Part shown: positions 57,853-62,386 of the stretch, piece after piece | How the letters are laid out: each line of letters starts with the position of its first letter | Position numbering within the stretch: position 1 is the first letter of the stretch | Source: Bythopirellula goksoeyrii | Lineage (GTDB): Bacteria; Planctomycetota; Planctomycetia; Pirellulales; Lacipirellulaceae | NCBI RefSeq assembly: GCF_008065115.1 | Contig: NZ_CP042913.1 | Coordinates: forward strand, 1,958,338 to 2,022,337 | Length of the DNA: 64,000 nucleotides | Direction: 5' to 3' | Made by a program: the position numbers and the translations under genes | The notes under the pieces: model-generated | Told to the model about the DNA's origin: nothing | The model's database searches: none | The model's input: the letters and a program-made list of their open reading frames with translations, nothing else

Positions 57853-58113
57853 ATGGCCTCTTCTAACCAAGGACGGTTCCAGCAACAGATTAGTTTTCTC
57901 AGGCGTCAGTTTTTGCAGGGAGGCGGCGTTCCTTTCGCAGATGTGCTTTCCGAAGCGATTGGGACGCGCTCCGCTTTGTCGAGCTCCACTCGACAGCCGC
58001 GTTGCGGCAAACAATTTTGGCGGCAGCTTTTTGCCCAATTTCTGGCACCTTTGACGATCCGTCCTTCAAAGCGTACAAATAAGGGCAGGGCGAACAATCG
58101 CGGCTGTGGGTGA
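57853..58113 (+). pseudogene. Possible transposase N-terminal remnant
   Basis: A good AGGAGG site (7 nt) precedes an 86-residue frame. Its first 35 residues ('GRFQQQISFLRRQFLQGGG', 'VPFADVLSEAIG') recall the N-terminus of IS4-type transposases known from planctomycetes. After that the sequence loses any likeness and runs into the SRP RNA. Family assignment is from memory and tentative. Confidence 0.35.
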
Positions 58114-58231
58114 GGGGTCTCTGCAATGGGGGCCTTGCGAACCTGGTCAGGGTGGAGACACAGCAGCCATAAGCTAGTGCTTCTTTGTGTGGGGGCCTCT
58201 CACCGGCGGTCGCGATTGTTCCTGTTTTTTT
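58086..58231 (+). ncRNA. ffs: Signal recognition particle RNA (small bacterial type)
   Basis: The apical domain is unmistakable: GGTCAGG-GTG-GAGA-CAC-AGCAGCC at about 58145-58167, with the GGUCAGG/AGCAGCC symmetric loop and a GNRA cap. The basal stem is GTGAGGGG.../...CCTCTCAC (58110 to 58203). A further 11-bp perfect stem (58092-58102 with 58211-58221) encloses it and ends in T7 (58225-58231), so the transcript or its terminator extends beyond the usual 4.5S core. It is 31 bp upstream of dnaX, as in the B. subtilis scr-dnaX-yaaK order. Confidence 0.92.
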
Positions 58232-58262
58232 CCGCTAAGCTGCCAGCGGCTTTGAGATTTCG

Positions 58263-60017
58263 ATGACTGAGGAAGACCGATCTACGACCACTGGGGCAGA
58301 TTATGTCGTCGTCGCACGTCGGTATCGCCCCCAGGGCTTCGATGAGCTGATCGGACAACAGCATGTGGCCCAGGCCCTGAAGCGCGCGATTTCCAGCGAT
58401 CGGGTGGGGCATGCTTATCTTTTCACAGGGGCTCGGGGGGTCGGTAAGACCTCGGCGGCCCGCATCCTGGCTAAGGCCCTCAACTGTGAGCAGGGGCCAA
58501 CCGCCACTCCGTGCAACGAGTGCGAGATTTGCGAGTCGATTGCCGCTGGTGATGACGTGGATGTCCTCGAAATCGACGGTGCCAGCAATCGCGGCATTGA
58601 TGAGATTCGGCAGTTGCGGCAGAACGTGGCCGTTCGTCCCAGTCGATCTCGGCTGAAGATCTACATCATCGACGAAGTCCACATGCTCACCAAGGAGGCG
58701 TTCAACGCCTTGCTTAAAACGCTCGAAGAACCACCTGAGCATGTGAAATTTATCTTCGCCACGACCGAAGCGAACAAGATCCCGATCACGATCCTTTCGC
58801 GCTGTCAGCGGTTCGATTTTGCGGGTATTGAGTCGACGGCGATCCAGGAGCGGCTCGCCCAGATTGCCGAAGCTGAGGGAGTTACCGCCGAACCGGATGC
58901 GCTGCAGATTCTTGCCATGCGTGCCGCGGGTTCGATGCGTGATAGCCAATCGCTATTAGAGCAATTGCTTTCCGGAGGGGGCAATGCCATCACCACCGCC
59001 GACGTGACCGAGATGCTGGGAATTGCCCCAGCGGCACGGCTGAGTCAGTTGGTGCTCCCCTTGGTAAATCACGATGCCGCGACTGCCTTGGCGGAACTCG
59101 ATGCCGCGCTTGCCGAGGGGGCAGACGAAAGCCAATTGATTGACCAGCTGCTGGGTTATTTCCGCGATGTGATGACCCAAGCGGTGGGCTGCGACGAAAG
59201 CCGCCTGCTCTATGCCTTGCCGAGCCAGTGGCAGGAAGTGCGAGAGATCTCCGAGCAACTGGGAGTTCACACGTTGCTGGCCATAGTACAGGTACTCGAC
59301 CAGACAGCGGCCCGCATGCGGGTCAGTACTCACTCGCGAACTTTGGCCGAGATGGCAGTGGTGCGGATTTGCCAATTGGAAAACCTCGATGAGTTGGCAA
59401 CGCTGCTGGAGCAACTCCGTGAGCTTCCCGCTGGGGCACGAGAAATGTCAGGTGGAATAAAAAAAAACGCAACCTCTAGCCAAGCCCGCCCTTCTCGCCC
59501 TGCCGCGGTAACGCGTCAGAGTTTGCCCGCACGAGAGACGCCTGCGTCGCCCACGACCGCTCGGCAGGAGTCCGTGGCAGCGGTAGCGGTGGAGAGTGCC
59601 CCGTCGAAGGAAATACGTGTCCCCACGGCTGAGAACGTTGAGCAGATTTGGAAACAGGCGCTCGATTCGCTCACCGGCATGGTCGCCGACCAGGCTTCGC
59701 ATGTGGATGAAGTAACGGCCGATGCAGATGGGCGAATGGTGATCACATTCACCGAGAGCTTCTACCGCGATTGGTGTGAGCGACCCGCGAATCGTGCTCG
59801 GTTGGACGCAGCTCTCACAGAAGTCTGTGGACGCAAAGTGCCGTTAGTGTTGCAAGCGACAAAGCGTGATCCCGCGTCTTCAACGTCTGCGCCTCCCCCC
59901 TCGCGTCGCCAGAAACAGATGGAGTTAGTTTCTCAGCCGTTTGTGAAAAAGGCCATCGACCTCTTCGACGGCGATACGCAACGACTTAAGTACATTCCGC
60001 CGGCTGAAAAGAATTAG
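58263..60017 (+). CDS. dnaX: DNA polymerase III subunits tau/gamma
   Basis: 584 residues. The clamp-loader ATPase. Walker A 'LFTGARGVGKTSAARI' is near residue 60, followed by a zinc module ('CEQGPTATPCNECEICESI'), Walker B/DExx 'YIIDEVHMLTKEAFNALLKT', sensor 1 'FATTEANKIPITILSRCQRF' and the domain III helices. A linker of about 60 Ser/Pro/Ala-rich residues starts near 395, followed by a tau-type C-terminal domain ('VEQIWKQALDSLTGMVADQA'). At residues 399-402 an A9 run could produce a short gamma form. ybaB follows; recR is not next to it. Confidence 0.96.
   Translation: MTEEDRSTTTGADYVVVARRYRPQGFDELIGQQHVAQALKRAISSDRVGHAYLFTGARGVGKTSAARILAKALNCEQGPTATPCNECEICESIAAGDDVDVLEIDGASNRGIDEIRQLRQNVAVRPSRSRLKIYIIDEVHMLTKEAFNALLKTLEEPPEHVKFIFATTEANKIPITILSRCQRFDFAGIESTAIQERLAQIAEAEGVTAEPDALQILAMRAAGSMRDSQSLLEQLLSGGGNAITTADVTEMLGIAPAARLSQLVLPLVNHDAATALAELDAALAEGADESQLIDQLLGYFRDVMTQAVGCDESRLLYALPSQWQEVREISEQLGVHTLLAIVQVLDQTAARMRVSTHSRTLAEMAVVRICQLENLDELATLLEQLRELPAGAREMSGGIKKNATSSQARPSRPAAVTRQSLPARETPASPTTARQESVAAVAVESAPSKEIRVPTAENVEQIWKQALDSLTGMVADQASHVDEVTADADGRMVITFTESFYRDWCERPANRARLDAALTEVCGRKVPLVLQATKRDPASSTSAPPPSRRQKQMELVSQPFVKKAIDLFDGDTQRLKYIPPAEKN
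59450..59479 (+). other. Probable programmed frameshift or slippage site in dnaX
   Basis: AGGTGGA, then AT, then nine A and C, in phase as ATA-AAA-AAA-AAC. One extra A in the mRNA or a -1 ribosomal shift gives K-K-K-R-N-L and a TAG at 59477-59479. The AGGTGGA just upstream resembles the Shine-Dalgarno stimulator of E. coli dnaX, and the A9 resembles Thermus dnaX slippage. The product would be about 405 residues. Confidence 0.65.
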
Positions 60018-60036
60018 ATCAGTTGGTAGGCAGTGT

Positions 60037-60062
60037 CACTGCGATGCGTTGCATCGCGGCTA
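60037..60062. repeat. Dispersed repeat, CACTGCGA...ATCGCGGCTA type (copy 2)
   Basis: Matches 30103-30128 at 23 of 26 positions. The centre TGCGTTGCA is nearly palindromic. It fills part of the dnaX-ybaB gap. Confidence 0.6.
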
Positions 60063-60122
60063 ACAATGAAAGAACTATTCATCAACTGTCAGCATCGTGC
60101 TGCCGTAAGACAGGAGTAAATC

Positions 60123-60494
60123 ATGTTCAAAGGACTAGAAAACATTGCCAACTTGGGTGGTCTCATGAAGCAGGCCCAGGAAATGAGTGGCAAAATGAAG
60201 CAACTCACCGAGGAGTTGAAAGCCAAGCGAGTTGTCGGCTCTTCGGGGGCCGGACTCGTGGAAGTCGAAGCCAGCGGAACTGGCGAAGTGCTGGCCGTGC
60301 GCCTCGATCCCAGTCTCGTTGAAAAGCAAGACCGTGAATTGCTCGAAGACTTGCTTCCAGGTGCCATTAACGATGCTCAGCAGAAGGCAAAGGAACTCTA
60401 CGCCAGCAAAATGCAAGAACTCACCGGCGGCATGAACATTCCCGGACTCGGCGACATGCTCGGCCAGCTGGGCGATGGGCCTGGGCAAAGTTGA
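60123..60494 (+). CDS. ybaB: YbaB/EbfC nucleoid-associated protein
   Basis: 123 residues. A small DNA-binding protein. The family signature is 'MKQAQEMSGKMKQLTEELKA', then 'GAGLVEVEASGTGEVLAVRL' and 'LEDLLPGAINDAQQKAKELY'. The Gly/Met-rich end is normal. An AGGAG site precedes the ATG. The dnaX-ybaB order is widely conserved; recR, usually third, is missing here. Confidence 0.94.
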   Translation: MFKGLENIANLGGLMKQAQEMSGKMKQLTEELKAKRVVGSSGAGLVEVEASGTGEVLAVRLDPSLVEKQDRELLEDLLPGAINDAQQKAKELYASKMQELTGGMNIPGLGDMLGQLGDGPGQS

Positions 60495-60510
60495 CATGAC
60501 CAGCCTCTTG

Positions 60511-60570
60511 CTGTCATTTCGAGGTACTCCGAGGAATCTGGCCCGATCCCTCGGAGTACTTCGGGATGAC
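60511..60570. repeat. Dispersed palindrome, GTCAT..CGAGGTACTCCGAG type (copy 2)
   Basis: A 60-bp palindrome nearly identical to 37995-38056, starting 17 bases after the ybaB stop. Both copies follow the end of a gene. The gap 60571-60871 up to rpoN holds nothing else recognised. Confidence 0.85.
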
Positions 60571-60871
60571 GAAGTGTGAAATCCCGGGCATCCTCAGATA
60601 CTTACCTCGCAATTTGTCAAGACAGGATTCGTGTCTTGTATCTCGTCGCCAGCATGGTTTGCTGCAAATAGCCCAGATTCTGGGCTATCACACTTTTCGC
60701 ATTTCTACCGCTCCCAAACCGCAATAATACACTAGAATTGTGGTAGCCCGTCGGAGGGACAAGTTTGACCTTCGAGTAGCAATCACATTATGCTACAGAT
60801 CGGAGACTTCGGCGGCGCGGACGGTTGAAGCCCCCACGTAATTCCTTGAACTTTAACGAGCAGTTTATTTC

Positions 60872-62386
60872 ATGCGACTTTCATTCGGCCAACAGATGCA
60901 GATGGCTCAGAAGCAGGTGCTTGCACCGCGGATGATCCAATCGATGGAGATACTGCAGCTGCCGATCCTTGCTTTGCAGGAACGCATCGAGCAAGAGATG
61001 GAAGACAATCCTGTGCTCGACAAGGCAGAGCTGTCTGACGAGTCAACGGAAGTTGACGAGGATGCTTACAATTCGGATGCCCCGACCGAGTCCGAGAAAG
61101 AATTGGTTGTCAGAGATGACACCAACAACGAAGACGACTTCGAGCGACTCTTGAACATGTCGGACAATCTGCCCGACGAATACGAGGAGCGTAGCCGCCC
61201 CTCGCGTGGACAGATGGAGGCTGAGTCCGACCGACATCACGACGCCATGGCAAACATGGTGTCGCGCCCCGAATCACTTCTGGATTATCTCGATCACCAA
61301 CTCAGCTGGTTCGACCTTGATGAACCTCTCCGGAAGATGTGCGAGCGAATAATTTACAACCTCGACACGAACGGCTATCTCAAGTCACCGCTAGAGGAAC
61401 TCATTCCCCCCGCACCAACAGATATCAACGGCGATGCTCAGTCTTGGCGCGCTGAACAACTCAAGATTGCCGAATCGGCACTCGCCATCGTTCAACGACT
61501 TGACCCGCCAGGGATCGGTGCGCGCAACCTCAAGGAATGCCTGCTCCTGCAATTGACATCAGGCCTGCTGTTCTACGAAGAATTGCAAGTACTTATCGAA
61601 GACCACCTGGAAGACCTGGAGAACAATCGTCTTCCATTGATTGCCAAGAAAACCGGTTTCTCCATCGAAACAATCCAGGAAGCGTGGGAAGACCTGCGAA
61701 CGCTCAAGCCGAAGCCGGGAGCGGAGTTCAACGAAACCTTCGCCCCCTCGGTAACGCCCGATGTCTATGTCGATCGCAAAGACGAGGGTGGCTATGAGGT
61801 CCGCTTGGAAGACACCCAGTTGCCGTCGCTCTACATCAGCAACACTTATCGCAATCTGCTCCAAGATCCCAACACCAACGCCGAAACCCGCGAGTACATC
61901 AAACGGAAAGTCAACTCGGCCCAGTGGATCATCGAGGCCATCGAACAAAGGCGAAGTACGCTCACCAAGGTTTCGCAGGCCATCGTCGATCATCAAACAA
62001 GCTTCCTCGACAACGGACCCGAACACATAGAACCCCTCAAGATGCAGCAGATTGCCGACAAAGTCGGTGTGCATGTCACCACGGTGAGTCGGGCTGTTGA
62101 CGACAAATGGATGCAGACCCCGAGAGGAATTTTTCCGCTCAAGCGGTTCTTCGTAGGAGGCACCACTAGTGCTGACGGCGAGGAAGTCGCCTGGGACAAG
62201 GTGCGACTCAAATTGCAAGAAATAGTTGACAACGAAGACAAGACCAAACCGCTGAGCGACGATGCTTTGGTCGACGAGCTTGCTAAGGCGGGCATCACCG
62301 TCGCACGCCGCACGGTCACCAAGTATCGCAAAGCGATGGATATTCCCAGCAGCCGCCAACGGCGGGACTGGTCGAAGGAAAAGTGA
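60872..62386 (+). CDS. rpoN: RNA polymerase sigma-54 factor
   Basis: 504 residues. Region I is Gln/Leu-rich ('SFGQQMQMAQKQVLAPRMIQ', 'SMEILQLPILALQERI'), region II is acidic (about 55-120), and the core-binding domain follows. The HTH is 'LKMQQIADKVGVHVTTVSRA' and the RpoN box is 'ARRTVTKYRKAMDIPSSRQR'. It drives -24/-12 promoters with enhancer-binding ATPases. No raiA, ptsN or lptB neighbours, unlike proteobacteria. No strong ribosome site. Confidence 0.96.
   Translation: MRLSFGQQMQMAQKQVLAPRMIQSMEILQLPILALQERIEQEMEDNPVLDKAELSDESTEVDEDAYNSDAPTESEKELVVRDDTNNEDDFERLLNMSDNLPDEYEERSRPSRGQMEAESDRHHDAMANMVSRPESLLDYLDHQLSWFDLDEPLRKMCERIIYNLDTNGYLKSPLEELIPPAPTDINGDAQSWRAEQLKIAESALAIVQRLDPPGIGARNLKECLLLQLTSGLLFYEELQVLIEDHLEDLENNRLPLIAKKTGFSIETIQEAWEDLRTLKPKPGAEFNETFAPSVTPDVYVDRKDEGGYEVRLEDTQLPSLYISNTYRNLLQDPNTNAETREYIKRKVNSAQWIIEAIEQRRSTLTKVSQAIVDHQTSFLDNGPEHIEPLKMQQIADKVGVHVTTVSRAVDDKWMQTPRGIFPLKRFFVGGTTSADGEEVAWDKVRLKLQEIVDNEDKTKPLSDDALVDELAKAGITVARRTVTKYRKAMDIPSSRQRRDWSKEK

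What the first reader, a model, noticed from the sequence alone, without database searches (positions are those of the whole stretch)
59440..59480. dnaX carries an A9 slippage/frameshift signal that would yield gamma as well as tau
Seen: AGGTGGA, a 2-base spacer, nine A in phase A-AAA-AAA-AAC, and a TAG nine bases later in the -1 frame, all at the junction of the ATPase domains and the tau linker. Known: E. coli dnaX uses a -1 shift with an upstream Shine-Dalgarno, and Thermus dnaX uses transcriptional slippage on A9. This site combines both features. A random A9 in a conserved gene of a GC-moderate genome would be counter-selected unless useful.
Basis: partly seen in the sequence, partly recalled or inferred. 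Interest (0 to 1): 0.72.

Follow-up and report, generated by a model that had tools for sequence, protein, structure and literature searches.

The report
Conserved slippage site in planctomycete dnaX
This bacterium's clamp-loader gene carries a run of nine A's that most likely makes RNA polymerase slip, so that one gene yields a long and a short replication protein; the run and the stop codons behind it are kept by selection in most of the relatives examined within its class.

Summary
It is not chance. A run of 9-11 A at this junction occurs in 13 of 13 dnaX genes of the genus and 106 of 130 examined in the class; synonymous recoding predicts about 10. Stops just behind the run are over-represented in both wrong frames. 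Run length is all-or-nothing: 2-5 A in 24 genes, 9-11 A in 106, none with 6-8, where recoding predicts 26. Three relatives have a zero-frame stop at the run and continue tau in another frame, two in -1 and one in +1. This fits Thermus-type transcriptional slippage, giving tau plus a ~405-415-residue gamma, better than E. coli-type ribosomal frameshifting. The Shine-Dalgarno-like AGGTGGA is not conserved (1 of 13 in the genus) and no clear stem-loop enrichment was seen. The mechanism is known from Thermus; its spread over this class was not found in the papers I could search. No expression data were available.

The parts
58263..60017 (+). dnaX, zero-frame ORF encoding tau (584 aa)
   Evidence: ORF; NF004046 and TIGR02397 above cut-off; domains I-III within residues 31-385
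59459..59467 (+). A9 slippage run, codons AT(A AAA AAA AA)C
   Evidence: conserved as A9-A11 in 13 of 13 genus genes and 106 of 130 class-level genes
59477..59479 (+). TAG in the -1 frame: stop for gamma from A10 transcripts or a -1 shift (405 aa, ends KKKRNL)
   Evidence: sequence; one search stop distance 3 codons
59509..59511 (+). TAA in the +1 frame: stop for gamma from A8 or A11 transcripts (about 415 aa)
   Evidence: stop distance 13 codons; position read
59450..59456 (+). AGGTGGA, Shine-Dalgarno-like; probably incidental
   Evidence: an SD-like 5-mer is present in 1 of 13 genus genes
58989..59417 (+). domain III of the clamp loader (residues 243-385), last domain kept whole in gamma
   Evidence: PF12169
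59598..60014 (+). tau-specific C-terminal part, lost in gamma; DnaX_C / DnaA-domain-I-like fold (weak evidence)
   Evidence: searches (PF20964 at E 0.028, below cut-off; PF20964 in 11 of 42 relatives at E up to 0.01), model, fold matches

Best explanation
The A9 is a programmed transcriptional slippage site. RNA polymerase adds or drops A's at the run, giving mixed mRNAs. Transcripts with 9 (or 9+3n) A's are translated to full-length tau (584 aa). Transcripts with 10, 8 or 11 A's shift frame and stop soon after, giving gamma (405 or about 415 aa), which keeps clamp-loader domains I-III but lacks the tau C-terminal part. Shown here: sequence, conservation, selection on synonymous sites, two-frame stops, run-length threshold. 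Inferred: that slippage happens in the cell, its rate, and that gamma works in the replisome.
For: Conservation: A>=9 within 260 nt after domain III in 13/13 genus, 19/27 rest of family, 58/73 rest of order, 15/16 other class members; 0 in the up to 1080 nt before the junction in any group. Synonymous-recoding null: 106 of 130 observed against 9.7 expected. Run-length gap: none with 6-8 A's, 26.1 expected. Stops within 5 codons: -1 in 90/106 (null 27%), +1 in 68/106 (null 23%), both in 57/106 (null 6%); mean over draws of one gene per family: -1 15.4, +1 15.1, both 11.2 of 20. Phase and length vary (phases 0, 1, 2; 9-11 A), so it is not a KKN peptide motif. Two-ORF relatives need opposite directions: L206 and L208 (-1), L188 (+1); Antonov et al. 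2013 take mixed direction as the mark of transcriptional realignment (PMC3711429, section 10). Negative control: of 12 genus copies of the inositol-1-phosphate synthase gene, which has an A9 in the window's genome, only that one has nine A's. Two tRNA-Lys species, UUU and CUU, as reported for Thermus (PMC5009743 section 21).
Against: No RNA or protein data. 24 of 130 class-level genes, 59 of 68 in the rest of the phylum and 62 of 64 named genes of other phyla lack the run, so gamma made this way is dispensable to many. In the window gene the +1 stop is 13 codons away; in the genus the -1 stop is within 4 codons in 12 of 13 but the +1 stop is within 5 codons in only 6 of 13, which a -1 ribosomal shift would also explain. 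In L013 and L170 neither stop is close. Genes are related by descent, so counts are not independent; the tree needs 17 gains or losses inside the class.
Confidence: 0.84

Rival explanations
1. E. coli-type -1 programmed ribosomal frameshifting on A_AAA_AAC, helped by the SD-like AGGTGGA, makes gamma; transcription is faithful.
For: In-phase heptamers A_AAA_AAA and A_AAA_AAC in the window gene, and a -1 stop 3-4 codons on in 12 of 13 genus genes; the window gene passes the SD test that E. coli dnaX passes.
Against: SD-like motif in 1 of 13 genus genes and at background in the class; raw downstream folding energy equals control windows (104 genes: median -10.7 against -10.9 kcal/mol; E. coli -19.1 in the same window; -18 or below in 11 of 104 against 7.9% of controls); +1 stops equally frequent when one gene per family is taken; no runs of 6-8 A, which would suffice for a ribosomal heptamer; no dnaX frameshift element among the Rfam matches at E up to 5 (that Rfam holds such a family is recalled); A_AAA_AAC is less shifty than A_AAA_AAG in E. 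coli (PMC5009743, passage).
Confidence: 0.09
2. Both levels act together: transcriptional slippage is the conserved mechanism and the window species has added an SD-stimulated ribosomal shift.
For: AGGTGGA lies 2 bases before the run in the window gene.
Against: The motif is absent from the nearest relative L004; the spacing is shorter than the 10 bases between AGGGAG and the A-run of E. coli; that a short spacing is unfavourable to a -1 shift is recalled.
Confidence: 0.05
3. The run is kept for another reason: a lysine-rich peptide, an A-tract DNA site or promoter element, or a DNA-level phase-variation tract; gamma is not a product.
For: Poly-A tracts can serve such roles (general knowledge, no call).
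Against: The A's at synonymous sites and the out-of-frame stops in both frames are over-represented; phase and encoded residues vary (KKN, KKK, KKT, KKM); a DNA-level switch would not keep 9-11 A with the zero frame open for over 100 codons in 101 of 106 genes (of the other five, three are two-ORF and two end at a contig edge).
Confidence: 0.02

Closest known systems
Thermus thermophilus dnaX transcriptional slippage (Larsen et al. 2000, not held; known here through passages of PMC1088944 and section 21 of PMC5009743)
   Same: A9 in the sense strand of a single tau ORF, stops in both non-zero frames, short product lacking the tau C-terminus
   Different: The run lies 68% of the way through the gene here, against seven-eighths in Thermus (PMC1088944); different phylum; here a class-wide conservation record exists and slippage itself is untested
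E. coli dnaX -1 ribosomal frameshifting (MG1655 gene read)
   Same: Gamma ends after the clamp-loader domains; -1 stop close to an A-rich slippery site
   Different: A9C instead of A6G; no conserved SD, no clear stem-loop enrichment, stops in both frames
Two-ORF dnaX genes with A7-A10 (Antonov et al. 2013, PMC3711429; passages and section 10 read)
   Same: Poly-A junction between gamma and tau parts; L188, L206, L208 here are of that layout
   Different: In the window gene tau is the zero-frame product; the passages I read name only Chlorobium and Chloroherpeton species among those genes; the supplement with the A10 genera could not be read
Caulobacter gamma by proteolysis of tau (from PMC5009743 section 21)
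   Same: Second way to obtain a gamma form
   Different: Post-translational; needs no slippery run; not tested here

Membership tests
Thermus-type dnaX programmed transcriptional slippage | Run of 9 or more A's in the sense strand after the clamp-loader domains | tested here: met
   106 of 130 class-level genes
Thermus-type dnaX programmed transcriptional slippage | Tau encoded in one zero-frame ORF | tested here: met
   584 aa; 101 of 106 run-bearing genes open for 105 codons or more after the run; of the other five, L188, L206, L208 are two-ORF and L159, L184 end at a contig edge
[quoted passage not shown]
   window: 3 codons (-1), 13 codons (+1), the latter not very near; class: both within 5 codons in 57 of 106 against 6%
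Thermus-type dnaX programmed transcriptional slippage | mRNA population with added or missing A's | not testable with these tools
   needs cDNA sequencing
Thermus-type dnaX programmed transcriptional slippage | Gamma and tau both made, about 1:1 | not testable with these tools
   needs protein data
E. coli-type dnaX ribosomal frameshifting | Slippery heptamer A_AAA_AAG | tested here: not met
   run is A_AAA_AAA_AAC
E. coli-type dnaX ribosomal frameshifting | Upstream Shine-Dalgarno stimulator | tested here: inconclusive
   an SD-like motif is in the window gene, but in 1 of 13 genus genes only and at background in the class (8 of 106 against 6.9%)
E. coli-type dnaX ribosomal frameshifting | Downstream stem-loop | tested here: inconclusive
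   no clear enrichment over control windows; window z-score -0.02; the z-score test also misses the E. coli stem-loop (z 0.30), the raw-energy test does not
E. coli-type dnaX ribosomal frameshifting | Match to a described dnaX frameshift RNA family | tested here: not met
   none listed in cmscan of 58000-60600 at E up to 5
Two-ORF dnaX (Antonov et al. 2013) | Zero-frame stop at the run, tau in another frame | tested here: not met
   window tau frame is open; the layout is seen in L188, L206, L208

The most novel reading that the evidence does not exclude
Slippage-made gamma is ancestral to a whole class of Planctomycetota and has been kept by selection for the short form itself; run length (9, 10, 11), phase and frame act as an evolvable dial, with some lineages flipping to a layout in which gamma is the default and tau needs slippage in either direction, and others losing the run altogether.
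Probability: 0.6. Interest if true: 0.66.

Novelty: new member of a known kind. Interest (0 to 1): 0.56.

Why it matters
Whether bacteria need gamma has been argued over mostly from E. coli (PMC5009743 section 21). A slippage site with selected synonymous bases and selected out-of-frame stops, kept over much of a bacterial class and lost in some lineages, is evidence that the short form is useful, and gives natural pairs (with and without the run) in which to ask what gamma does. It also warns that annotation of these genomes, and assembly of A9-A11 runs, can miss or misread a second replication protein.

Tried and rejected
Ribosomal stimulators: SD-like motif (106 genes) and downstream structure (104 genes, two left out as too short) were not clearly enriched. 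The z-score form of the structure test is uninformative because the E. coli positive control also fails it. A peptide-level (KKN) reason was rejected by varying phase and by the synonymous null. No dnaX element came up in Rfam. Alternative homopolymers in the 24 run-less genes: some hold G7 or C6-C8 (for example L039, L044, L192), others nothing of 6 or more; not pursued. A structure model of the tau tail (mean pLDDT 80.7, pTM 0.58) matched the DnaA domain I entry 4tps best (Z 9.9; Foldseek E 0.0055) and the E. coli tau C-terminal domain weakly (2aya, E 0.036; not among the 50 rows); this supports a tau-type tail only loosely. A profile search of the tail against PDB sequences found one chance-level match. 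Literature: searches listed no paper whose title or abstract start concerns planctomycete dnaX slippage; lists were capped at 10-30 rows; only Antonov 2013 held both 'planctomycetes' and 'transcriptional slippage'. Larsen et al. 2000 was not held.

Sampling. Genus and family: all 40 matching genomes of 43 searched (loci from those). Order: 74 loci of 189 matching genomes outside the family: 70 picked by hand from the listed rows to spread over families, before their runs were seen, one given (L128, from a genome with two dnaX copies, possibly a contaminant) and three given. Class outside the order: all 16 that sampled, one family. Rest of phylum: 69 loci of 248 matching genomes, mostly one per family but up to four, from the best-matching rows that one search listed (the list is cut), so biased to nearer families. 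Dropped for short sequence: L159, L293, L067, L071 (L159 is). L210 (same gene as L202) was left out. The named set overlaps the unnamed one (L049 and L182 are the same contig stretch by length and coordinates; L059 and L216 have the same run context). Where a class-level gene outside the order has two runs, the last was used. Runs of 9 or more A's further downstream (260-660 nt) occur in 3 of 68 and 1 of 64 genes outside the class and were not counted. In the stop test the observed counts include all 106 genes, the null only those with 20 or more codons left.

Full report
Observation. The described elements are all present at the stated place. dnaX runs from 58263 to 60017 on the + strand, 584 aa, and passes the DnaX models NF004046 and TIGR02397. 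The A9 (59459-59467) is read ATA AAA AAA AAC. One extra A, or a -1 shift, leads after KKKRNL to TAG at 59477-59479, 405 residues. One A fewer, or two more, leads to TAA at 59509-59511, about 415 residues. Pfam domain III ends at residue 385, so either product keeps the whole clamp-loader part. The mere presence of one A9 in 64 kb is not surprising (0.91 expected), but the whole 6.47 Mb genome holds only 19 matches (18 runs), about a fifth of what that rate extrapolates to.

Conservation. In the genus, 13 of 14 genomes gave a true dnaX (G012, 87% complete, gave none), and 13 of 13 have the run: twelve A9, one A10, always encoding KKN; the -1 stop comes after 3-4 codons in 12 and after 13 codons in one. 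Counting A>=9 within 260 nt after domain III: genus 13/13, rest of family 19/27, rest of order 58/73, other class members 15/16, rest of phylum 9/68, named Planctomycetota 11/14 (with the run, among others: Gemmata, Schlesneria, Aporhodopirellula and two Phycisphaerae; without: L048, L050 Anammoximicrobium, L060 Scalindua), named other phyla 2/64 (a Verrucomicrobia and an Ignavibacteria contig). No gene in any group had A>=9 in the up to 1080 nt before the junction. With the short locus L159 added, the class-level figure is 106 of 130, in 20 of 21 families. On a FastTree of the N-terminal parts (199 tips, rooted with L229) the 130 class sequences form one clade whose parsimony ancestor has the run, with 17 changes inside it; 200 label shuffles give 22.2 on average and 17 at least, so presence follows descent to some degree, yet it has changed often. 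I take the class to be Planctomycetia from the named members; the class name comes from no call.

Selection on the run. Drawing synonymous codons from each gene's own usage gives A>=9 in 9.7 of 130 genes (sd 2.7); 106 are seen; for the window gene alone the probability is 0.017. The longest A-run at the junction is 2-5 in 24 genes and 9, 10 or 11 in 74, 31 and 1; none has 6, 7 or 8, where the same null expects 26. All 106 run-bearing genes, and only 2 of the 24 others, encode KK after domain III. A threshold at nine is what Baranov et al. 2005 report for selection against slippage in a large proportion of genomes (PMC1088944, passages and the first of five parts of the text).

Selection on the stops. 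Within 5 codons after the run a stop stands in the -1 frame in 90 of 106 genes (null 27%), in the +1 frame in 68 (null 23%), in both in 57 (null 6%). Real positions further down the same linkers give 16%, 14% and 2% (2020 positions). Weighted to one gene per family, -1 and +1 are equal (15.4 and 15.1 of 20). In family f7, 4 of 4 genes have the +1 stop at 2 codons and the -1 stop at 8-15. In the window's own genus the picture leans to -1: within 4 codons in 12 of 13, while the +1 stop is within 5 codons in 6 of 13. A ribosomal -1 shift needs only the -1 stop; transcriptional slippage, which adds and drops bases, needs both, as described for Thermus (PMC5009743, section 21).

Direction. L188 (A11), L206 (A10) and L208 (A10) stop in the zero frame 0, 0 and 3 codons after the run, and the tau tail continues in +1 (196 codons), -1 (206) and -1 (237). 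Mixed direction among orthologues is the criterion by which Antonov et al. assign transcriptional realignment (PMC3711429, section 10). A homopolymer miscount in a draft genome could also produce this; it was not excluded.

Against ribosomal frameshifting. An SD-like motif before the run is peculiar to the window gene among the 13 of the genus. Downstream folding energies equal control windows (104 genes, median -10.7 against -10.9 kcal/mol), while E. coli dnaX folds at -19.1 in the same window; -18 or below is reached by 11 of 104 against 7.9% of controls. The genome has tRNA-Lys with anticodons UUU and CUU; the review notes that two lysine tRNAs in Thermus may be relevant to its use of polymerase slippage. 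These points lower, but do not remove, a ribosomal share.

Negative control. The same genome has an A9 in the interior of its myo-inositol-1-phosphate synthase gene. Of the 12 genus copies only the window species' own has nine A's, the nearest has eight, the others 2-5. A second one (L241, no Pfam family) is absent from the one relative whose match covers it (L338).

What gamma would lose. The run starts 8-65 codons after domain III (median 25, 106 genes), and tau continues for a median of 182 codons (101 genes). The tail is conserved (42 sequences), matches Pfam DnaX_C in 11 of 42 relatives at E up to 0.01 though only at E 0.028 in the window protein, and its model resembles DnaA domain I and, weakly, the E. 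coli tau C-terminal domain. So gamma would be a clamp loader without the tau tail; that the tail binds polymerase or helicase here is inferred from E. coli.

Verdict. The site works, most likely, like the Thermus thermophilus dnaX slippage site. It meets the sequence-level features of that kind; the RNA- and protein-level features are untested. What seems new, as far as the papers searched go, is its spread and depth of conservation in Planctomycetota, and the mix of layouts within one order.

Noticed in passing
window 58111-58205 (+): Small bacterial SRP RNA (RF00169, 47.9 bits) lies just upstream of dnaX.
   Followed up: no
window 60123-60494 and 60872-62386 (+): YbaB/EbfC nucleoid protein gene and a sigma-54 factor gene follow dnaX.
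   Followed up: no
G000:C1:4816756-4818946 (outside the window; L386): Dense array of 19 tRNA genes on one strand, including one with an odd four-base anticodon call; may be a mobile-element tRNA array.
   Followed up: no
L188, L206, L208: dnaX in two overlapping ORFs with A10-A11 at the join: gamma in the zero frame, tau only by slippage, in opposite directions.
   Followed up: partly
L298: dnaX stops 14 codons after the junction point used; the tau tail continues in the +1 frame, overlapping by 33 codons, with an ATG just after the stop and no A-run: a split gamma and tau tail, another shift site, or an assembly error.
   Followed up: partly
L310: The dnaX frame ends 25 codons after the junction point used, in a very GC-rich stretch with no A-run; no tau tail recognised.
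   Followed up: partly
L212, L214, L225, L226: Two long A-runs starting 12 bases apart (A9 TTG A9-A10) at the dnaX junction, the second followed directly by TGA or GTGA.
   Followed up: no
L072, L078: A9 at the dnaX junction also in a Verrucomicrobia and an Ignavibacteria contig, each with stops within 5 codons in both frames.
   Followed up: no
L239 (G000:C1:1034185-1034193): A9 inside the inositol-1-phosphate synthase gene, not conserved in the genus.
   Followed up: yes
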